Position numbers and translations under genes: made by a program | Shown: positions 43,735 through 53,999 of the stretch, in pieces | How positions within the stretch are numbered: the stretch's first letter is position 1 | How the letters are laid out: each line of letters starts with the position of its first letter | The notes under the pieces: generated by a model | Told to the model about the DNA's origin: nothing | What the model saw: the letters and a program-made list of their open reading frames with translations, nothing else | Database searches by the model: none | DNA from: Methylocaldum sp. 14B | GTDB taxonomy: Bacteria > Pseudomonadota > Gammaproteobacteria > Methylococcales > Methylococcaceae | Direction: 5' to 3' | NCBI RefSeq assembly: GCF_002005105.1 | Contig: NZ_MSCV01000005.1 | Location: 124,001-188,000 of the forward strand | DNA length: 64,000 nt

Positions 43735-44874
43735 GGCGCCTCCTCGTTTTTTTTGTTATTACGGTTTTGTTAAGGGCGTGAGCAAACTGTTTATCCGCAA
43801 TCCAGGATGTTTTCCCGCTATTCTCCGCTCGGGTATGCCTATGCTGTCAAGTTAAACCTTAAACTGTTTAATAGTATCGAAAAAGCGGTTTTTCATACTC
43901 TTCAACGCCAGAATCTCTGGTGCCGATATTCAGCCGCATTTGAGGCAGAATTTATAGAGAGGCGGCCAATTCAAAGAAGTTTTCGATAACCCGTGTTTCG
44001 AGATAATCGGCATGAATTTGAATCGACTCGATTTGGGTTACATAAAACCGATTATACTTTCGATCCCCTCTGTCGAAAGGTTATACGGCGATTATTCATC
44101 AACGGGTTATTGCCAATCACTGCTCGCCAAGGTTGCCGTCCACTCTGTGCTGAAGGCGCAATGTATTTCATACGACACAACAAATCCTTTTCAGCACATC
44201 ACAAAACCGATTTGAGCAATAAAGTAGAACGGCTATGAGATTTTGTCGGCAAAATATAAAGTCTGACGAAATATCCGGGCGAGTCTTTTAGGTCTTCAAC
44301 CAAAGAACTGGTCCGGCACTCAAACTCTCAAATTCATGCCTCTTACTTGGGAGGAAGCCAATCCTGCAAAATCAAGCCATGTGTATTATTTGCTAACCAT
44401 GAGCCTTGCTACGAAGTGAATCTTCTGGATATACGTTAAGCCGGGGTCCGTTTGTATTAGGCGATAGGTATCTTGTGCCGGGAGCGTGCACGCTCCGACA
44501 AGGATTCGTCTGTGAAAAATTACCCTGGCACGTACAATTTGTCCCCTGTTTGGTTTCGAAGCGGTTAACTGTGTTGGAATGTAAGAACTGCCCCCCCTTT
44601 CGCCCGTGCTCAAGATTCGCCTCGATCGTCTCAAGATCGGCTTCAACGGGCGTTCACCTCTGCCGATACCGGCCTTCCCGAGCGTCAGCTCTCTTCGAGA
44701 CCGAATCGGTGGTTCGTTCCCAAAGGCGCCATTGAACACGCGATTCCAGTTGCCGGCACACGACAAGACAGAACGTGAAGTCAAATTAACACGCCCTCGG
44801 TGGCGTACAATATCACACGCATATCCGCCTCATGGGCTACGCTGGTTTCGGACATAGAACACGAGAAATCCCTT
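43735..44874. other. 1.1-kb AT-richer region, no supported gene
   Basis: This stretch is clearly less GC-rich than its neighbours, mainly 43800-44300. Several short open frames exist but none has a ribosome site or recognisable product. It may be a decayed gene or transferred DNA. Confidence 0.45.
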
Positions 44875-45414
44875 ATGAAAGCATCGAACAGGAAAATGAC
44901 TCAAAAGGTGTTAGTCATTGTTTTCGGCGCATTACTGTCCTCGCTTAACCCCGCTTGGGCAGAAACCGATAAGGAAATCCAAGAGAAAGCGCTCAAAGCT
45001 CGCGAACAGAGCCAGCACGGTGCCATGGATCATTCGGCTCATGCCAGCCCCGAGGGAGCGGCAGGCAAATTTCGGGGCGTCTTTTACGGCTACCTGCCGT
45101 GTCATGAAGAAGATTGCAACGGTCTGAAAATGACCCTGTCCTTGAATGCCAAGAACAACTATCTTTTGGTCATCCAGCCCGCAAAGCCGCAAAACCGAGA
45201 GTCCTTCGAAAAAGGAAAATACGAATGGAACGACACCAAAGGTGTCGTCTTGTTGACCCCCAACAAAGAGGCCCCTCAGCGTCGGCTCGCCATTAAAGAT
45301 GAAGGCACTTTGCTCTATCTAAGCGACGACGGGGCGCCATTGCCTGGAGACCAGGACAGGTATCTGCTGCAACGGAGCGACAGGGCCGGCAATCGGGAAA
45401 TGCACATCCATTGA
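44875..45414 (+). CDS. NlpE-like copper-response/resistance protein
   Basis: 179 residues from the ATG at 44875, giving a Sec signal peptide (VLVIVFGALLSSLNPAWA). The mature N terminus is His/Met-rich (QHGAMDHSAHASPEG), typical of copper binding. The following domain resembles the NlpE N-terminal fold: FYGYLPCHEEDCNGLKMTLS with two cysteines, then LLYLSDDGAPLPGDQDRYLL. NlpE proteins sense envelope stress and copper. No lipobox is present here, unlike E. coli NlpE, so it is probably soluble and periplasmic. Its position near the oxidase is consistent with a metal theme. Confidence 0.78.
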   Translation: MKASNRKMTQKVLVIVFGALLSSLNPAWAETDKEIQEKALKAREQSQHGAMDHSAHASPEGAAGKFRGVFYGYLPCHEEDCNGLKMTLSLNAKNNYLLVIQPAKPQNRESFEKGKYEWNDTKGVVLLTPNKEAPQRRLAIKDEGTLLYLSDDGAPLPGDQDRYLLQRSDRAGNREMHIH

Positions 45415-47639: not shown

Positions 47640-47819
47640 TAGAGCGTGTTCATCTCGCTCGTACGGCGAAACAGGCCTGGCAGGAGTCGTTGGCGCCTTC
47701 GGCCAGGGTAGATCGACTCAATCGTAGGTCGGCAATCCTTTGCCGACGAACCCGTTGCGTCGGGAATGGATTCCCGATCTACTCGCGAGTTCCCATACAG
47801 TCGGTATGAAAATGCTCTA
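47640..47819. repeat. Compact 180-bp TAGAGC MITE-like element
   Basis: Begins TAGAGCGTGTTCATCTCG and ends with the inverted form of TAGAGCATTTTCATACCG. It contains a GTAGGTCGGCAATCCTTTGC palindrome followed by an inverted one. It looks like the basic form of the element seen expanded at 37312 and halved at 53922. Confidence 0.82.
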
Positions 47820-47951
47820 GTTTTCAGCGGGCTTGGAACGTCGGCTTCATGGAACCATGATCGAATTGGTACTTTGGCCGATCTTAAGACCGTTGGGACG
47901 CGCGCCGTGAGCATCCGCGGCTGGCCGCTCACCGCCGGACCGTATTGGGCT

Positions 47952-48045
47952 ATTGGGCAGGGGCCCCCTTTTCAGACCGCCGCGACATCCCGCGGCAAAA
48001 AATCCTGACGGCGGTGAACCTTTCCGAATTTCCTGAAATTTACGG
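47952..48045 (+). promoter_or_regulatory. Shared upstream block, copy 1 (before VEGG peptide gene)
   Basis: 94 bp nearly identical to the reverse complement of 53716-53810: the first ~70 bp (from ATTGGGCAGGGGCCCCC through GGCGGTGAACC) are the same, then AACCTTTCCGAATTTCCTGA diverges slightly. GAACCT, a 17-bp spacer and TTTACG have the layout of an ECF -35/-10 pair. The imperfect palindrome TTCCGAATTTCCTGAA lies between. The block ends 59 bp before the ATG at 48105. Confidence 0.65.
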
Positions 48046-48104
48046 TAAAAGAAGGAATGCGAGGATAGGGGAGGCGTTAACCCTGTAATACAAGGAGTTC
48101 GATT

Positions 48105-48413
48105 ATGAAATCTTATGCAATAGCAGCAGTACTGTCTTCGGTGATGATGGCCGGGCCTGCAATGGCCGATAACGACTTCCGGGCATTGGGCAAGGTGTCC
48201 AGCTTGAAACCGATGACCGAAGGGCAACTCTCTGCTGTCGAAGGCGGGATTTTGTTCCCGTTTAAGAAAGATCACGATCGTAAATTAAACGTTGGTAACG
48301 TTAACCAGAACATAGCCGTAACCACGATAACCGCGGTCAACCTAGCCTTGGGCAAGGGCGGCGCCAATCAGAATATTGTGGCGGTCACGCAGCAGAGCAT
48401 TGGCGGTAAATAA
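48105..48413 (+). CDS. Small secreted peptide with VEGG (double-glycine) motif, 1
   Basis: 102 residues; AAGGAG lies 7 bases before the ATG. The Sec signal peptide ends at AMA (about 21). Residues 22-48 (FRALGKVSSLKPMTEGQLSA then VEGG) resemble a bacteriocin-type leader end with GG at 47-48, yet sit after a Sec signal, which is unusual. The remaining 54 residues are Asn/Gln-rich with a repeated NQNI (NVNQNIAVTTITAVNLALGK and GANQNIVAVTQQS), somewhat like curlin repeats. It is preceded by the shared ECF-like block and followed by a terminator. Function unknown; an exported, proteolytically released peptide is plausible. Confidence 0.75.
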   Translation: MKSYAIAAVLSSVMMAGPAMADNDFRALGKVSSLKPMTEGQLSAVEGGILFPFKKDHDRKLNVGNVNQNIAVTTITAVNLALGKGGANQNIVAVTQQSIGGK

Positions 48414-48461
48414 AGCGAAGCCCATGGCCCATATCGAATGCTGATGAGGGCCGGAGAACCA

Positions 48462-48496
48462 GGCGGGGGAACGGTCATACGATCCCCCGCCTTTTT
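48462..48496 (+). terminator. Rho-independent terminator after peptide gene 1
   Basis: GGCGGGGG (48462-48469) pairs with CCCCCGCC (48484-48491), followed by TTTTT. It separates the two peptide genes, so the second may have its own promoter or rely on read-through. Confidence 0.9.
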
Positions 48497-48525
48497 GCTT
48501 CAATCAGAAAAGTATGGAGCGGCCG

Positions 48526-48891
48526 ATGAAAACATCATTCACATGGGGCGGTTTGCTACCGCTCGCTCTCTTATGTATGACTGCGGCCTCCGCTGATTCC
48601 CAGTTTCACGCCTTGGATAATCTGTCCCAGCAAGAAACGGGTACTGCGTTGTCTCGGCTGGACGATAGCGCGCTCGATCGAGTGGAAGGCGGGCTGGATA
48701 TTGCGTCCGGTTCGGTCGATCTGGCATCGCAACAAGCCGTGATGCAAGCGGTGGTGCTTGAGAGCACAATGCAAGCAGCCGATGGCACTGTGACTGAAAA
48801 GCGGGTCGATCGCGCGACCTCGCTGTTTCAGGTTTGCAGCTCGCCACCCTGTACCCAAAGTTGGCATCTTACGACGTCTTCGCATCTTTAA
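48526..48891 (+). CDS. Small secreted peptide with VEGG motif, 2
   Basis: 121 residues from the ATG at 48526, with GGAG 5 bases upstream; an earlier ATG at 48514 is weaker. A Sec signal ends at ASA (about 23). The next segment, FHALDNLSQQETGTALSRLD then DSALDRVEGG, parallels peptide 1 (F-x-AL-x-LS ... L-x-x-VEGG), with GG at 55-56. The C-terminal part is different and contains CSSPPC, which could form a disulfide. The two genes look like diverged paralogues sharing only signal and pre-GG segment, as expected if that segment is removed. Confidence 0.7.
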   Translation: MKTSFTWGGLLPLALLCMTAASADSQFHALDNLSQQETGTALSRLDDSALDRVEGGLDIASGSVDLASQQAVMQAVVLESTMQAADGTVTEKRVDRATSLFQVCSSPPCTQSWHLTTSSHL

Positions 48892-49896
48892 AATTGTGTC
48901 ATAGCGATCGACGTCCGCCGGCGTATGGATTGAGGAGCATGGATTGGCGCATCAATCCGTACACCGGTCGTCAGTCGGAAATAGTTTTCAAACGCGGGAA
49001 GGGGGCGGCGAAGCATGGGAGAAATCATGGTGATCCGAATAAAGCCCTTTGAGGCGGCGGAGTGTATCTCGCAATCTTTGCTCAAAAGGTATCGACCGCG
49101 ATAGGCCGGGTTGCGGCTCTTCACCCTCTTGCCGGCGTCGTAACTCGCGATTTCCTCTTTTTTGCACTGTCCTGGCAGACAGCTTTTTCGGCCTTGTGCT
49201 TCCGGTTCCGGTCCGCGTGTGTGGGGCGGTTAGAGACACCCAAGGTCAGATTTCTCGATACCAGCCCGACACTGTCAGTAGAAAACCTTCTTTGCCCTCG
49301 AACACCCGTCCTAGTCGCATGAACCGAATACGACGAAAGTCGATAGGATGCTTGAGCGGACGGGAGGTTTTACAAACGACGGACTGCCTATAGCTCGGGA
49401 AAGGTGTGCCGTGCTGACTCTTTCGGGCTTGCTGTGTATCCTTCAGGTTGAAAGGTATCCGCCGCAAGAATCTCGGAGGTGGGTTGAACTTTCCAATATT
49501 TGGACCGACTCCAAGTAGTATTCCTGGCGGACCGCCGTTATCTTTTTGGTTCCACAACTTGGCATAGCCAGTGGATAGGCATTTGCGCGACTCGATCGCC
49601 CAACTGACTCAGGAGGAGTTTCCTATGACAAGCCAACGCCCAACTCCCGGAACCCGCGCTGCTCAGCCCCCGTGCGAGCCTTCTGCCGTGCGCCTTCGCT
49701 ATGCGCATCACCGGAGTTCCGTCCCTATCCGAGGCCGGACGTGTGAACGCCTGCCGTCCGTCGTCAGCCGAAGATGTGTCGGTCGGACGAATTCTCTCAT
49801 GGCGAGCTGAGTTCACGCTTGTCGACATCGGATCTCTCCTGATCGTTCCCGGAGAGAATGCGGTCATATCCCTTGCCGAAACCGATAAGAGCTTTC
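48892..49896. other. 1-kb region without a recognised gene
   Basis: AGGAGGAG at 49611-49618 precedes an ATG at 49625 with a 61-codon frame of low-complexity Arg/Pro-rich content, probably not a real gene. The overlapping frame ending in the TorF-like start (49701-49907) is also doubtful. No repeat family from elsewhere in the window was recognised. Confidence 0.4.
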
Positions 49897-50616
49897 ATGA
49901 ATCGTAGGCTTTCGTGGCTACTGCTCGCCTTGTTCAGTGTTCCGGCGCTTGCCGACTTCAAGGGATCCGTGACCTTCGCAACGGATTATGTTTATCGGGG
50001 CTATACGAAGAGCAGGAACAATCCCGTCGGCCTGGGGAATCTGGAATACGAGCATGAACTCGGCTTGTATGCCGGCCTCTGGGTGGCACCGGTGAGTTTC
50101 GACGATGAATACTATGATGACCGAGCCCGTGTGGAAATCAATCCTTATCTGGGTTGGGCGACCAAGTTTGCCAAGAACTGGAAGCTTGATCTCGCGGCTA
50201 GCCGGTATCTATATGATGGCAAAGTGTTCGGCCAGGACTCGGACTATAACGAACTCTACGGTTCGCTCCATTACCGCGATTTTCTGAGCGCTCGGGTGGC
50301 TTTTGCCTACGATACCTATAACCGTGGCGCCAAGACCTTGGCCTATGAACTGGTCGGCCGCTATAGCCCGGTGGATCGGCTGCAACTGTCCGCGGGCGTA
50401 GGCTTTCATCAGGCCGGCGAACTGGCGCACTACGACTACTTTTTCTGGAATGCCGGAGTGACCTGGTACGTGAATCGGTATATTTCGGTCGATTTGCGCT
50501 ATGTGGATACCAAGTTGCCTTATTACGAGCATCACGAGGACGAGCCTGAGAATGGATCGATATATCTCCAGCCGCTGGATGACCGCTTTCTATTTTCCCT
50601 CTCTGTCGGCTTTTAG
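49897..50616 (+). CDS. TorF/TIGR02001-like outer-membrane beta-barrel protein
   Basis: 239 residues. The signal peptide ends at VPALA (about 17), and the mature protein starts DFKGSVTFATDYVYRGYTKS, the hallmark of the TIGR02001/TorF family. Alternating aromatic strands continue to a terminal FLFSLSVGF, a classic outer-membrane C-terminal signal. The role of the family is unclear. It lies inside the island between the VEGG peptides and the anti-sigma operon; whether it belongs to the same regulon is not shown by sequence, since no copy of the shared block precedes it. Confidence 0.85.
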   Translation: MNRRLSWLLLALFSVPALADFKGSVTFATDYVYRGYTKSRNNPVGLGNLEYEHELGLYAGLWVAPVSFDDEYYDDRARVEINPYLGWATKFAKNWKLDLAASRYLYDGKVFGQDSDYNELYGSLHYRDFLSARVAFAYDTYNRGAKTLAYELVGRYSPVDRLQLSAGVGFHQAGELAHYDYFFWNAGVTWYVNRYISVDLRYVDTKLPYYEHHEDEPENGSIYLQPLDDRFLFSLSVGF

Positions 50617-50944
50617 TGAACTTTTGGCCTGGCCGCGGAATAAATAGAGTAGAACCGCGGATTGACAGGTCCTCTTGTAGGCGATTTATCGCTTACTAGC
50701 CGGATAGCCGAACGGTCAAAAGAGCACGGTCGACCTTGTTCGGGTCCAATGGTTTTGTAATGACGACAGGTCGAGTTTCTTTTGAAGGACGCCCCCTAGA
50801 ATGCAGGCTTATGGGCTAGACCTGTTCGACAGTGGTGTAGCGTTCGAGAAGCGCTGAACGTATGTCTCACATTTGCAAATAGCTCGAGCTCTTCTTGGAT
50901 GATGGGATGCCTAAGTTGGATGCTCTTATTGTTGGAGAAGCGCG

Positions 50945-51652
50945 ATGAATCTGAGTAAGCCATGCCCGCCGGACCGTGAGCACGATGATGTGTTTTCACT
51001 TTTGCCCTGGCATATAACCGGAACCCTAGAGAGCGAAGAGCAGGCGCGGGTGGAGGCGCATTTGAGCCGTTGCCTGATTTGCCGACGTGAACGGGTGAAG
51101 CTTTACGCGCTTTCGGAGCGAATCTCTCACACGCCTTGTCCGAATCTGGATCCGCAGGCCGGATACTCTCGCCTGCTCGCCACCATTCGGCAGCGTGAAC
51201 GATCCGAATCGGCGGCGTTGCACTTCGATCGATTTGGCCGACTTCGAACCTGGCTCCGGCATTTTCCGGTCATCGTAAGCAAGCCACTGACCCGCGTGGC
51301 TCTGGCGGTGGTGCTTTTGCTGCTGATCGTCCCCTTGAGCTGGCGCCAGTGGGATCAACTAACGGAGCCCCGGTTTCGAACTTTGGCCGACCCCGCTTCG
51401 ACCGCAGCCTCGAATCAGGGGGATCTGCGCCTGGTGGTCGAACCGAGTCTTGGCGCCGAACATGTTGATGCGCTCTTGAAAGCAGTCGACGGGAGCCGAG
51501 TCGACATGCCCGGTTCGGCGGACGTTTATACGGTCCGACTGGCCGACGGCAGAGACAAGAATGCGAGGATCGAAGCGGCCTTGGCCTACCTTCGGCGCCA
51601 ACCGGGTGTATTGCTGGCAGAGCCGACAACCGGGCCTTCTTCGGCGCCATGA
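50945..51652 (+). CDS. Zinc-finger anti-sigma factor with protease-prodomain-like periplasmic end
   Basis: 235 residues; GGAG lies 7 bases before the ATG. The N-terminal anti-sigma domain has the zf-HC2 motif HLSRCLICRRE (His39, Cys43, Cys46). One membrane helix follows (VALAVVLLLLIVPLSW, about 118-133). The periplasmic end (about 155-235: LRLVVEPSLG, YTVRLADGRDKNARIEAALA, YLRRQPGVLLAEP) resembles the propeptide/inhibitor fold of subtilases, with the final VLLAEP in the place of the usual prodomain exit. The stop overlaps the start of the subtilase gene (ATGA). It should hold the convergent ECF sigma inactive at the membrane. Confidence 0.82.
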   Translation: MNLSKPCPPDREHDDVFSLLPWHITGTLESEEQARVEAHLSRCLICRRERVKLYALSERISHTPCPNLDPQAGYSRLLATIRQRERSESAALHFDRFGRLRTWLRHFPVIVSKPLTRVALAVVLLLLIVPLSWRQWDQLTEPRFRTLADPASTAASNQGDLRLVVEPSLGAEHVDALLKAVDGSRVDMPGSADVYTVRLADGRDKNARIEAALAYLRRQPGVLLAEPTTGPSSAP

Positions 51653-52956
51653 CGTTCAGCTTGATCGCTTTAGTCTTGGCGCTCCTGTTGCAACTGACCG
51701 GATGCGTGACGGACCGTGATTTTCCAAGCATCGGTCCCACGGCCGATCCATCGATTGAAGAGCGGCGCATCCTGGTGACTTTCACCGATTCGAGCATCGG
51801 ACGCAAGGTGCCGGACAATATTCTGGATCGTTATCGCGCACATGGCCGTTACATGAGTTCTGCCTGGAGCACCCGCGTCGCGGTAGATTTGGCGGAGCAG
51901 TACGGGCTGAAGCTGATGGCGGAATGGCCTGTTACCATTTTGAGAGTAGTGTGCGTGGTGTACGAAATTCCTGTCGGTCAAATCCCCGCCGATACTATCA
52001 AGACCATCGCGCAGGATCGCCGGGTCGAATCCGTACAGATCATGCGGACCTTCCGGGCTTTAGTAAATAATGCGTCGGCTTCCTTCGGCAGTGATCCTTA
52101 TTTTCGACTGCAAAAAAACTTACAGCGCATGCACATCGAGGAAGCCCATCGTCTGACGACCGGACGGGGCGTTCGCATCGCGCTGGTCGATACCGGTGTG
52201 GATGATACCCATCCCGACCTCAGGGGCCAAATCGCTGTCTCTAAAAATCTGGCATCATCGAATCACGATAAACCGACCGATGATATCCACGGGACGGCTG
52301 TCGCCGGCATAGTCGCCGCTCACCGTGGAAATGGAATTGGTATTGCGGGAGTTGCGCCCGATGCCAAAATCTACGCGCTTAAGGCGTGTTGGCCGGAGCG
52401 CTTCGGTTCCGTCGCTGCAGTGTGCAACAGCTTTACGCTCTTGGCGGCGCTCAATGAAGCCGTGCGTCTTGGCACCCATATCATCAATCTGAGCCTGACC
52501 GGGCCTGATGATCCGCTGGTCGGACGGCTTCTTCGGGCGGCGATCGATCAGGGTATCCTCGTGGTCGGCGCGGACGCCCGTGAAAACGGATCGATCGCGG
52601 GCTTTCCCGCCAATCAGACCGGAGTCATTGCGGTCCGAGCCGCCCAGGTGGATCGCAAGCCGGAAGCGGCCGCCAACGATGGGATCCATGCCCCCGGTAC
52701 CGATATTCTTACGACACTGCCGCACGGGAGGTACGACTTCGTGTCCGGTAGTTCCTTCGCCGCTCCCCATGTCACGGGCCTGTTGGCCCTGATGCGGCAA
52801 CTCAAGCCCAGCTTGACCTCGCCTGAGGCTATAGAACTCCTACACGCGTCGGCGGCGACCTCCGCGCAAGCTCCGAATCCATTGGACCGGATCGTCGATG
52901 CTTGCCTTGCACTCGCGCGATTGCTCGGTATCCCTGATTGCGGAAAGCCTTCGTAG
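51649..52956 (+). CDS. Subtilisin-family (S8) serine protease lipoprotein
   Basis: 435 residues. The signal peptide has lipobox LTGC (Cys19), so it should be membrane-anchored outside the cytoplasm. A prodomain-like region (about 38-135) precedes the catalytic domain. The triad is Asp181 (ALVDTGVDDTHPDL), His214 (DIHGTAVAGIVAA) and Ser369 (SGSSFAAPHVTGLLAL; GSS replaces the usual GTS). It is translationally coupled to the anti-sigma gene. It may cleave the anti-sigma periplasmic domain, be inhibited by it, or process the VEGG peptides; these are inferences from gene order and domain resemblance. Confidence 0.92.
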   Translation: MTFSLIALVLALLLQLTGCVTDRDFPSIGPTADPSIEERRILVTFTDSSIGRKVPDNILDRYRAHGRYMSSAWSTRVAVDLAEQYGLKLMAEWPVTILRVVCVVYEIPVGQIPADTIKTIAQDRRVESVQIMRTFRALVNNASASFGSDPYFRLQKNLQRMHIEEAHRLTTGRGVRIALVDTGVDDTHPDLRGQIAVSKNLASSNHDKPTDDIHGTAVAGIVAAHRGNGIGIAGVAPDAKIYALKACWPERFGSVAAVCNSFTLLAALNEAVRLGTHIINLSLTGPDDPLVGRLLRAAIDQGILVVGADARENGSIAGFPANQTGVIAVRAAQVDRKPEAAANDGIHAPGTDILTTLPHGRYDFVSGSSFAAPHVTGLLALMRQLKPSLTSPEAIELLHASAATSAQAPNPLDRIVDACLALARLLGIPDCGKPS

Positions 52957-53027
52957 CCGATCTTCACGTTCCCGAACCGCCGCTTCATGACTAGGTGGAG
53001 AGCTTTCTATCGCGCGAGCAGCCGGCG

Positions 53028-53657
53028 TCATGACATATCCTCTTCGGAAGGATCCATGAGCTCCGGTGTCAGCTCGTTAAATAAGGTCTGAAGCCTCTTG
53101 CGTGCATGAAACATCCGTGTTTTCACCGTATTTTCCGGACAGTCGAGGATGGCTGCGATCTCCTGATAACGAAGTCCATGGCCAAAGGTCAACTCGATAA
53201 CGGCGCGTTGCTCCTGCGGGAGCGAGTCCAAAGCAACGGAGAGCAGATCCTCGCCTTCCACCTGCCGTGCCGGTGACGCTCTGTTATCCGCCAATTCCTC
53301 TCCGAACTCGTCAATAGGCACGGCATGGGCGGATCTGGCCTGCTTCGCCGAGGCCTTAAGCGCCTTTCGATAAGCAATACCGAAAATCCAAGTTGATACC
53401 TTACATGTGTAATCAAAGGTCTCGGGCTTTTCCCACACGACTAGCATCGTTTCATTGATCACATCCTCCACCATATCCGGCTGTCGCGTCGCCTGAAAAA
53501 TAAACCTGGACAAGCGATGATAGAAGGCCGAATACAACATCTCGAAAGCACTCACATCGCGCGCCTGGATACCGGTCATCAGTTCCCGATCCCGATGATC
53601 ATCGATGCATGAGGCGGTTTGTCTATCAGGCAGGATTAGCGTGGGATCGACGGTCAT
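53028..53657 (-). CDS. ECF-type RNA polymerase sigma factor
   Basis: 209 residues from the ATG at 53657; an in-frame TTG two codons earlier is the alternative. Region 2 is visible (FEMLYSAFYHRLSRFIFQAT, DVINETMLVVWEKPETFDY) and region 4 (SLPQEQRAVIELTFGHGLRY, QEIAAILDCPENTVKTRMFH), with no region 3, as in extracytoplasmic-function sigmas. The gene is convergent with the anti-sigma/subtilase operon, an unusual layout since partners are normally in tandem. It is preceded by a copy of the same block found before VEGG peptide 1, suggesting autoregulation. Confidence 0.93.
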   Translation of the reverse strand: MTVDPTLILPDRQTASCIDDHRDRELMTGIQARDVSAFEMLYSAFYHRLSRFIFQATRQPDMVEDVINETMLVVWEKPETFDYTCKVSTWIFGIAYRKALKASAKQARSAHAVPIDEFGEELADNRASPARQVEGEDLLSVALDSLPQEQRAVIELTFGHGLRYQEIAAILDCPENTVKTRMFHARKRLQTLFNELTPELMDPSEEDMS

Positions 53658-53715
53658 AGGCAATGAATCGGTACCATGGTTGGTTTTTCCGAAGCAGGAA
53701 TAATCCGAGTCTAAT

Positions 53716-53810
53716 CTGTAGATTTCGGGAAATTCCGAAAAGGTTCACCGCCGTCAGGATTTTTTGCCGCGGGATGTCGCGGCGGTCTGAAAAGGGGGCC
53801 CCTGCCCAAT
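53716..53810 (-). promoter_or_regulatory. Shared upstream block, copy 2 (before ECF sigma gene)
   Basis: 95 bp, read on the minus strand from 53810. It is identical to copy 1 (47952-48045) through GGCGGTGAACC, then TTTTCGGAATTTCCCGAAAT and CTACAG. GAACCT, 18 bp, TCTACA fits an ECF-type promoter. The palindrome TTTCGGAATTTCCCGAAA is more complete than in copy 1. It ends 58 bp before the sigma ATG. Confidence 0.65.
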
Positions 53811-53921
53811 AAGGAGCCGGTCGAACCCGATTTCTGGGTGACAACTCACTATCCTTGGGCGGACAGCCGCCTCATAGAAAAGATTCGGGCGCTGATACTA
53901 CAGCAGACTCTTTAGCGGGCT

Positions 53922-53999
53922 AGAGCATTTTCATACCGACTGTACGGGCACTCACGAGTAGGTCGGGAATCCTTTCCCGACGCCACGTCTCGGCCGCGC
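53922..53999 (-). repeat. Right half of a TAGAGC MITE-like element
   Basis: TAGAGCATTTTCATACCGAC followed by TGTACGGGCACTC and a GTAGGTCGGGAATCC palindrome, in the opposite orientation to the other two copies. The element stops where selB coding sequence begins, so it marks the break point that removed the 5' part of that gene. Confidence 0.75.

What the first reader, a model, noticed from the sequence alone, without database searches (positions are those of the whole stretch)
47952..53810. Candidate new system: ECF sigma regulon with VEGG peptides, anti-sigma and subtilase
A ~94-bp block, the first ~70 bp identical, lies just upstream of both the first VEGG peptide gene (plus strand) and the sigma gene (minus strand), each time reading into the gene and ending 58-59 bp before the ATG. 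Each block ends in an ECF-like -35/-10 pair. Between them lie the anti-sigma and subtilase (coupled) and a TorF-like barrel. The simplest model is that the sigma activates itself and an exported peptide, with the protease and anti-sigma controlling its release.
Basis: partly seen in the sequence, partly recalled or inferred. Interest (0 to 1): 0.85.

Follow-up and report, generated by a model that had tools for sequence, protein, structure and literature searches.

The report
Subtilase-linked sigma switch for secreted peptide
A probable methane-oxidising bacterium carries a gene switch in which a membrane "brake" protein ends in a domain that looks like a protease's own safety cap, sits next to that type of protease, and appears to turn on itself and a small exported peptide; the brake-plus-protease pair recurs in many bacteria, but no experiment has tested it.

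Summary
A ~94-bp block, 73 bp of it identical, lies in front of the first VEGG gene and of the ECF sigma gene, and nowhere else in the genome at E 0.01. Only its inner part is shared by both upstream regions in a sister species. The refined pattern has three hits in the genome, all in this locus, and none in two sister genomes lacking the anti-sigma; an earlier pattern discriminated poorly.

The core is an older module, TorF-sigma-anti-sigma-subtilase. Its anti-sigma is found in 50 of 151 order genomes, with the same motif before most sigma genes examined. Similar sets occur in alpha-, beta- and gammaproteobacteria and Acidobacteriota. The anti-sigma C-terminus looks like a subtilase prodomain, suggesting that it docks onto the subtilase.

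VEGG peptides are a genus-specific add-on. Paralogues lie in Fap/Nap-like clusters with FapF, C39 peptidase and a sigma-54 activator.

No expression or biochemical data. New variant of a known kind.

The parts
47951..48043 (+). first copy of the ~94-bp block upstream of VEGG1; its outer half is not found in the sister species
48015..48043 (+). promoter-like site P1, ECF-type: TGAACCTTT-N11-GAAATTTAC, 90 bp before the VEGG1 ATG
48105..48413 (+). VEGG1: 102-aa peptide with Sec-like signal (by eye), ...QLSAVEGG double-glycine motif and Asn/Gln-containing C-terminal part
   Evidence: six matches in this genome (one weak, E 8e-4), 4 of 151 order genomes, all of one genus
48462..48496 (+). G+C-rich hairpin followed by T-run between VEGG1 and VEGG2 (attenuator-like; read by eye)
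   Evidence: sequence; similar stretches before other VEGG2 copies
48514..48891 (+). VEGG2: second VEGG peptide (start 48514 or 48526)
49897..50616 (+). TorF/Gcw_chp family putative outer-membrane barrel (ORF opens at 49858; start at 49897 is inferred)
   Evidence: PF09694 4.2e-19; TIGR02001 1e-26
50617..50645 (+). promoter-like site P2: TGAACTTTT-N11-GGAATAAAT, directly after the TorF stop, 328 bp before the anti-sigma ATG; in several other genera this place precedes the sigma gene
50945..51652 (+). anti-sigma factor (ASF): zf-HC2/ASDI N-terminus, one likely transmembrane helix, prodomain-like C-terminus
51416..51634 (+). subtilase-prodomain-like tail of the anti-sigma factor (residues 158-230)
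51649..52956 (+). S8 subtilase, putative lipoprotein (LTGC, by eye), own N-terminal prodomain-like region, residues D181/H214/S369 invariant in 12 of 12
53028..53657 (-). ECF sigma factor
53718..53747 (-). promoter-like site P3: TGAACCTTT-N12-GAAATCTAC, 90 bp before the sigma ATG
53718..53811 (-). second copy of the ~94-bp block upstream of the sigma gene

Best explanation
This is an autoregulated ECF sigma/anti-sigma switch whose anti-sigma factor is paired with a dedicated envelope subtilase. At rest the zf-HC2 domain holds the sigma at the inner membrane, while the tail of the anti-sigma, a fold like a subtilase prodomain, reaches into the periplasm (inferred from domain order). The tail docks on the active site of the neighbouring putative lipoprotein subtilase (inferred). 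When the subtilase becomes free or active, it cuts the anti-sigma as a site-1 protease, further proteolysis releases the sigma, and the sigma transcribes its own gene, the anti-sigma/subtilase operon and VEGG1 from three promoters of one type (site sharing is shown by sequence; transcription and cleavage are inferred). In this genus the older module (TorF-sigma-anti-sigma-subtilase) was rearranged and a VEGG1-VEGG2 pair was placed under its promoter (inferred). VEGG paralogues sit in Fap/Nap-like clusters, so the output is probably a matrix or secreted peptide.
For: Promoter: conserved core in front of sigma and VEGG1 in two species. Pattern TGAACYTTTN{9,13}GRAAT: three hits in the whole genome, all in this locus; four in G037, three of them in the same locus; none in G061 and G077, which lack an anti-sigma match. 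Pattern TGAACCTTTN{9,13}GGAAT: 27 of 50 anti-sigma-positive and 10 of 101 negative order genomes (Fisher P 9e-9), reversed control 11 of 50 and 17 of 101 (P 0.5). The 9-mer TGAACCTTT occurs 27 times in 31 loci, against a median of 2 and maximum of 11 for 200 shuffles. Linkage: in 29 of 29 order loci examined the anti-sigma is followed by the subtilase and a sigma lies nearby; 14 of 18 further class loci have the subtilase match downstream on the same strand, 27-1137 bp away; 31 of the 80 loci fetched by subtilase similarity carry an anti-sigma match nearby. Tail: PF22148 (fervidolysin prodomain) matches 10 of 12 full anti-sigmas at E up to 0.5, best 8.5e-6, and 17 of 46 tails at E up to 0.01, best 1.4e-7. 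The model gives beta-alpha-beta-beta-alpha-beta. The four best VIA rows of 50 shown are subtilase prodomains, 1spb_P with Z 8.9, rmsd 2.5, 68 aligned. N-terminus: ChrR/RsiW-like. Subtilase active-site residues are invariant. VEGG: FapF, C39 and sigma-54 activator neighbours of the paralogues.
Against: Profile comparison of the anti-sigma tail with the subtilase's own prodomain region is not significant (probability 2.7%). A tail profile finds no prodomain in the PDB sequences. Foldseek gives no PDB match at E 0.001 or below for the anti-sigma model; the fold is common, other ferredoxin-like folds follow within 1 Z unit, and the tool notes a typical best Z of 7 to 8 for models without a clear match. 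The window's own tail scores below the PF22148 cut-off. Three class-level loci have the tail but no subtilase in the stretch read (G462, G241, one of G362). The genome patterns were written after seeing the sites, so the genus count is partly circular. A first pattern, GAACCTTN{15,17}TYTAC, discriminated poorly: 3 hits in G000 (2 in the locus) against 4 for its reversed control, 8 in G037 (2 in the locus) against 1. The stricter order pattern has no hit in G000 itself. Of the 27 nine-mer hits several precede no long ORF. P2 is 328 bp from its gene. No complex model, expression or cleavage data exist.
Confidence: 0.6

Rival explanations
1. The tail is an inhibitor, not a substrate. The anti-sigma keeps the subtilase latent, and the protease is an output of the switch (for example processing exported proteins such as VEGG) rather than the trigger that frees the sigma.
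For: Subtilase prodomains are inhibitors as well as chaperones (established knowledge of the S8 family). The anti-sigma/subtilase pair lies behind a site of the same type (P2). The Glu-Pro near the C-terminus, invariant in 12 of 12 of alignment A2, is followed by only 3 to 14 residues, as expected for a product-like inhibitor; it is not invariant in the wider set of 46.
Against: The anti-sigma occurs in 48 order genomes without a VEGG1 match, so VEGG is not its constant substrate. Class I membrane anti-sigmas are commonly released by site-1 proteolysis (general knowledge).
Confidence: 0.25
2. The subtilase is merely a neighbour. The sigma is controlled by another periplasmic signal binding the ferredoxin-like tail, and the gene order is historical.
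For: Three class loci have the tail without a subtilase in the stretch read. The ferredoxin-like fold is common. Direct profile comparison with the subtilase's own prodomain fails.
Against: Linkage in 29 of 29 order loci and 14 of 18 class loci, and in records named as several proteobacterial classes and Acidobacteriota. PF22148, a subtilase prodomain family, is the only family hitting more than one of the 46 tails at E 0.01.
Confidence: 0.12
3. The shared 94-bp block is a recent inverted duplication or gene conversion with no regulatory meaning.
For: In this genome the two copies (96%) are more alike than either is to its counterpart in G037 (86% and 79%). A dispersed repeat flanks both.
Against: The inner core is kept in front of both genes in G037 while the outer half is not found there, and the motif lies before the sigma gene in most order loci examined.
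Confidence: 0.05
4. VEGG1/VEGG2 are under sigma-54 or housekeeping control here as in the Fap-like clusters, and the ECF site is incidental.
For: Other VEGG1 copies have TGGCAC...TGCA-like upstream sequences (read by eye).
Against: The ECF pattern occurs before only the locus copy of VEGG1 in each of two species, at near-equal spacing.
Confidence: 0.08

Closest known systems
Class I (zf-HC2) membrane anti-sigma factors, e.g. RsiW/ChrR type, with ECF sigma
   Same: Anti-sigma domain matches ChrR and RsiW by sequence; one likely transmembrane helix; sigma gene nearby; autoregulatory promoter inferred
   Different: Periplasmic part resembles a subtilase prodomain, and a subtilase gene overlaps or lies downstream. 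No such pairing in what I saw of PMC7406223 (passages and section 6 part 1) and PMC8103513 (passages)
ECF54 group (subtilase, carboxypeptidase and CHAT proteins in the gene context)
   Same: Subtilase encoded near an ECF sigma (PMC8999054, passages)
   Different: [quoted passage not shown] here a class I anti-sigma is present. ECF group membership could not be tested (the classification paper is not held)
RsiV/sigmaV lysozyme receptor of Bacillus
   Same: Anti-sigma that binds an enzyme as the signal (PMC4183432, PMC5014341: start of abstract in the search listing only)
   Different: That enzyme is lysozyme, a signal from outside; here the candidate partner is the cell's own subtilase
Eukaryotic site-1 protease (S1P)/SREBP
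   Same: A subtilase (recalled) with inhibitory prodomain whose cleavage activates a transcription factor (PMC11231238, title and start of abstract in the listing; rest recalled)
   Different: An analogy of working only; here the prodomain-like part sits on the regulator; no homology claimed beyond the S8 family
Fap amyloid secretion (Pseudomonas) and nap island (Neisseria)
   Same: VEGG paralogue clusters hold a FapF homologue, a C39 peptidase and double-glycine peptides (PMC5557850 and PMC11798529, passages)
   Different: The VEGG pair in the window lacks FapF and C39 neighbours in the part read and carries an ECF-type site; VEGG1 and VEGG2 match no Pfam or NCBIfam family at E 1

Membership tests
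ECF sigma factor | sigma region 2 and region 4 only | tested here: met
   PF04542 9.1e-9, PF08281 7.5e-17, no region 1 or 3 family listed; TIGR02937 7.4e-25
ECF sigma factor | recognises GAAC-type -35 promoters, usually its own | tested here: inconclusive
   Sites conserved by comparison; no transcription test
class I (ASDI, zf-HC2) anti-sigma factor | anti-sigma domain with HxxxCxxC motif | tested here: met
   PF13490 1.4e-5, 12 of 12 members; H39, C43 and C46 invariant in 12
class I (ASDI, zf-HC2) anti-sigma factor | inhibits the cognate sigma | not testable with these tools
   -
subtilase prodomain (I9/fervidolysin-type) | sequence match to a prodomain family | tested here: inconclusive
   PF22148 in 17 of 46 tails at E 0.01, best 1.4e-7; the window's own tail scores 20.2 bits against a cut-off of 21; hhalign and PDB sequence search negative
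subtilase prodomain (I9/fervidolysin-type) | beta-alpha-beta-beta-alpha-beta fold | tested here: met
   Model; VIA rows 1-4 are S8 prodomains, though the fold is common
subtilase prodomain (I9/fervidolysin-type) | encoded in cis on the protease it binds | tested here: not met
   Encoded on the anti-sigma factor; the subtilase model has its own N-terminal beta-alpha-beta-beta-alpha-beta region
S8 subtilase | Asp/His/Ser triad | tested here: met
   PF00082 8.5e-36; D181, H214 and S369 invariant in 12 of 12 (triad labels recalled)
Fap/Nap-type double-glycine peptide | GG motif plus linked FapF-like barrel and C39 peptidase | tested here: inconclusive
   Met for paralogue clusters L074 and L079; not seen at the window locus itself
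ECF54 | subtilase in the context without an anti-sigma factor | tested here: not met
   A class I anti-sigma is present; the defining feature is taken from passages of PMC8999054

The most novel reading that the evidence does not exclude
The anti-sigma tail is a trans-acting subtilase prodomain. The occupancy of the envelope subtilase's active site is itself the signal: a competing substrate or misfolded envelope or exported protein displaces the tail, and the freed protease then destroys the anti-sigma. This would be a bacterial counterpart in working to S1P/SREBP, spread over proteobacteria and Acidobacteriota, with lineage-specific outputs such as the VEGG peptides.
Probability: 0.42. Interest if true: 0.82.

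Novelty: new variant of a known kind. Interest (0 to 1): 0.62.

Why it matters
How many ECF anti-sigma factors sense their signal is unknown (general knowledge). Here the sensor domain suggests its own partner, a protease encoded next door, so the signal path can be tested directly with two purified proteins and a reporter. If true it would add a class of anti-sigma factors controlled by a prodomain-protease pair, and it links one such switch to Fap/Nap-related exported peptides in a probable methanotroph.

Tried and rejected
Rejected: a terminal-inverted-repeat transposon reading of the two inverted blocks. Only two copies of the block exist, the six genes scanned show no transposase (no dedicated transposase search was made), and the outer repeat is a dispersed element. 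Rejected: VEGG peptides as essential to the module.

Led nowhere: Rfam on six VEGG loci (0 matches); scan of genome contigs with the single anti-sigma sequence (no relative); first promoter pattern, not better than its control in G000; hhalign of tail against the subtilase's own prodomain (not significant); tail profile against PDB sequences (no prodomain). Paper searches for an anti-sigma with a subtilase or prodomain: searches showed no such system in the titles and abstract starts listed. Lists were capped (20 of 34, 15 of 403, 12 of 18, 10 of 52), so a description may have been missed. Weak but in the right direction: the tail profile searched against the ORFs of 47 subtilase loci without an adjacent anti-sigma gave as its four best hits four subtilase ORFs, each just before or overlapping the start of the catalytic match, E 0.015-0.29.

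Rows dropped: L224 from the tail set because its match ended too early; 27 of the 72 remaining tails were left out of alignment A4, which holds 45 of them plus the window's own; a TorF match inside the sigma gene of L008/L085 was not counted as TorF; among the 80 loci, L220 and L228 reach the contig edge and count as not linked; G336 (contig end) counts as not linked in the 18. One search listed more places than the 29 loci examined, which are the best-scoring ones.
Full report
Where it is. The window is G000:C5:124001-188000 of a 5.6-Mb draft genome.

The observation. The two blocks are real, inverted to each other, 96% identical over about 94 bp with the outer 73 bp identical, and found only twice in the genome. 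The flanking inverted repeat I2 is a dispersed element with 40 matches scored and carries no information here.

What the block is. In the sister species G037 the gene order is kept (VEGG1, VEGG2, TorF, anti-sigma, subtilase, sigma on the other strand; 53-88% protein identity). There the two upstream regions share only the inner part of the block: about 48 bp at 85%. My reading of the four sequences is AAAAAATCCnGACGnnnGTGAACCTTTTC...TTTCCnGAAATYTACRG. So the conserved unit looks like an ECF-type promoter. The extra identity in G000 is best read as recent homogenisation (inference: the copies within G000 are more alike, 96%, than each is to its G037 counterpart, 86% and 79%).

A third site and the regulon. 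TGAACTTTT-N11-GGAATAAAT stands at 50617, directly after the TorF stop. With the pattern TGAACYTTTN{9,13}GRAAT, G000 has 3 hits, all in this locus; G037 has 4, three of them in the locus; G061 and G077, which have no anti-sigma at E 0.001, have none; the reversed pattern gives 0, 0, 2 and 1. The pattern was written after seeing the sites, and an earlier one, GAACCTTN{15,17}TYTAC, was poor: 3 hits in G000 (2 in the locus) against 4 control hits, 8 in G037 (2 in the locus) against 1. A broader view comes from other genera. In 31 loci of the order (11, 20) the 9-mer TGAACCTTT occurs 27 times; 200 shuffled 9-mers have median 2 and maximum 11. Within 180 bp of the sigma gene it is exact in 11 of 31 and within one mismatch in 23 of 31; 300 shuffled 9-mers reach at most 1 and 6. 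Related loci are not independent, and the motif was picked after looking. Over 151 order genomes the pattern TGAACCTTTN{9,13}GGAAT is found in 27 of 50 anti-sigma-positive and 10 of 101 negative genomes, P 9e-9; the reversed pattern in 11 of 50 and 17 of 101, P 0.5. This strict form has no hit in G000 and one in G037. Among the sites in other genera I picked seven with a long ORF behind them for domain scans: a TIGR03118 protein (L145), a multicopper oxidase (L155), a cytochrome c/propeller protein (L161), a cupredoxin (L084) and Flg_new_2 repeat proteins (L088, L090, L091). They look exported by eye; this is a selection, not a census.

The ancestral module. The anti-sigma was found in 50 of 151 order genomes. 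All 29 loci examined with flanks (L005-L033, the best-scoring places) have the subtilase next to it and a sigma nearby, 25 of 29 a TorF within the ~3.7 kb read. Among the 31 larger loci, which overlap this set, 24 read TorF-sigma-anti-sigma-subtilase on one strand, 5 lack an adjacent TorF, one has TorF elsewhere, and one is the window-type G037. At class level 17 of 369 genomes match at E 1e-12, the window's own included. Of 18 loci other than the window, 14 have a subtilase match downstream on the same strand, 27-189 bp away in seven and 554-1137 bp in seven, 3 have none in the stretch read, one is a contig end. Of the 80 best loci fetched by subtilase similarity, 31 carry an anti-sigma match nearby, in records titled Duganella, Janthinobacterium, Dokdonella, Sphingopyxis, Bradyrhizobium, Methylobacterium, Kaistia, Acidobacteriota and Desulfobulbaceae among others, several of them MAGs. 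The window therefore shows a rearranged version: the sigma has moved and P2 stays where the sigma promoter was (inference).

The anti-sigma tail. The N-terminus is a class I anti-sigma domain (ChrR and RsiW in the PDB). A helix at 114-139 is the likely membrane span. Residues 160-227 form beta-alpha-beta-beta-alpha-beta in the model (blocks of pLDDT 77-93 from residue 161 to 230; whole-model pTM 0.36). PF22148, the fervidolysin prodomain family, matches 10 of 12 full proteins at E up to 0.5 (best 8.5e-6; the window's own 0.0082, below cut-off) and 17 of 46 tails at E up to 0.01 (best 1.4e-7; no other family hits more than one). Foldseek has no match at E 0.001 or below, but lists subtilisin prodomains with target TM-scores near 0.7. 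VIA-align 2 ranks four subtilase prodomains first (1spb_P, Z 8.9, rmsd 2.5, 68 aligned); other ferredoxin-like folds follow within 1 Z unit. Against: hhalign with the subtilase's own prodomain region fails (2.7%) and a PDB sequence search fails. The subtilase keeps D181, H214 and S369 in 12 of 12 and has its own prodomain-like region at 40-131 in a model of modest confidence (mean pLDDT 71, low around 353-369); its best Foldseek match is pro-subtilisin E (E 8.5e-17).

The VEGG peptides. VEGG1 matches occur only in the four genomes of the genus among 151 (23 places). FapF and sigma-54-activator homologues lie beside VEGG copies in L074, L078, L079 and L080, one in each of the four genus genomes; a C39 peptidase in L074, L076, L079 and L082. 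The FapF call rests on a PDB match of E 3e-22, C39 on PF03412 4.5e-22, the activator on PF00158 with a VpsR domain, all for L079. Fap (PMC5557850, passages) has a periplasmic C39 protease whose target was reported as unclear; the nap island (PMC11798529, passages) has GG peptides, C39 and a FapF homologue. So VEGG is best read as an exported peptide with a second, periplasmic GG processing site (inference). The copy in the window is the version wired to the ECF sigma.

Mechanism and verdict. Shown by sequence: shared promoter-like sites confined to the locus, conserved module, anti-sigma domain, prodomain-like tail (moderately strong), intact protease residues. Inferred: docking, cleavage, signal, transcription. 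I found no description of such an anti-sigma in the listings (capped lists, titles and abstract starts) or in the passages read, but the main ECF classification paper is not held, so the linkage may already be tabulated there.

Noticed in passing
L074, L076, L078, L079, L080, L082 (upstream of VEGG1 copies, sequences): Many VEGG1 copies of the Fap-like clusters have TGGCAC...TGCA sigma-54-like sites and leaders with a GGTCG-NAAGGA-NNCGACC hairpin and further GGA motifs (by eye), which look like CsrA/RsmA sites or an undescribed leader RNA; Rfam has no match at gathering threshold.
   Followed up: partly
L134 (G462), L142 (G241): Sigma and tailed anti-sigma genes lie between DnaK/DnaJ/DapB-like and CarA/CarB-like genes (names recalled from the sequences) with no subtilase match in the stretch read.
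   Followed up: no
window 47753-47820 and 53920-53987: A ~70-bp repeat with 40 matches scored in the genome.
   Followed up: no
L084, L145, L155, L161: Genes behind the same ECF-type motif in other genera include a cupredoxin, a TIGR03118 protein, a multicopper oxidase and a cytochrome c/propeller protein, hinting at an extracellular redox or copper theme.
   Followed up: partly
window 44800-45414: An apparently exported ORF that resembles the N-terminal domain of NlpE (recalled, not searched), upstream of the locus.
   Followed up: no
L085:8303-8713 (G029): The sigma gene looks N-terminally truncated and overlaps a TorF-like fragment in another frame.
   Followed up: partly
L073 (G000:C4), L077 (G037), L081 (G077): A further VEGG1 lineage, paired with VEGG2 in L073 and L081, has a similar upstream region of its own without a hit of the ECF pattern; the G000 copy is 87% identical to the VEGG1 of the window.
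   Followed up: no
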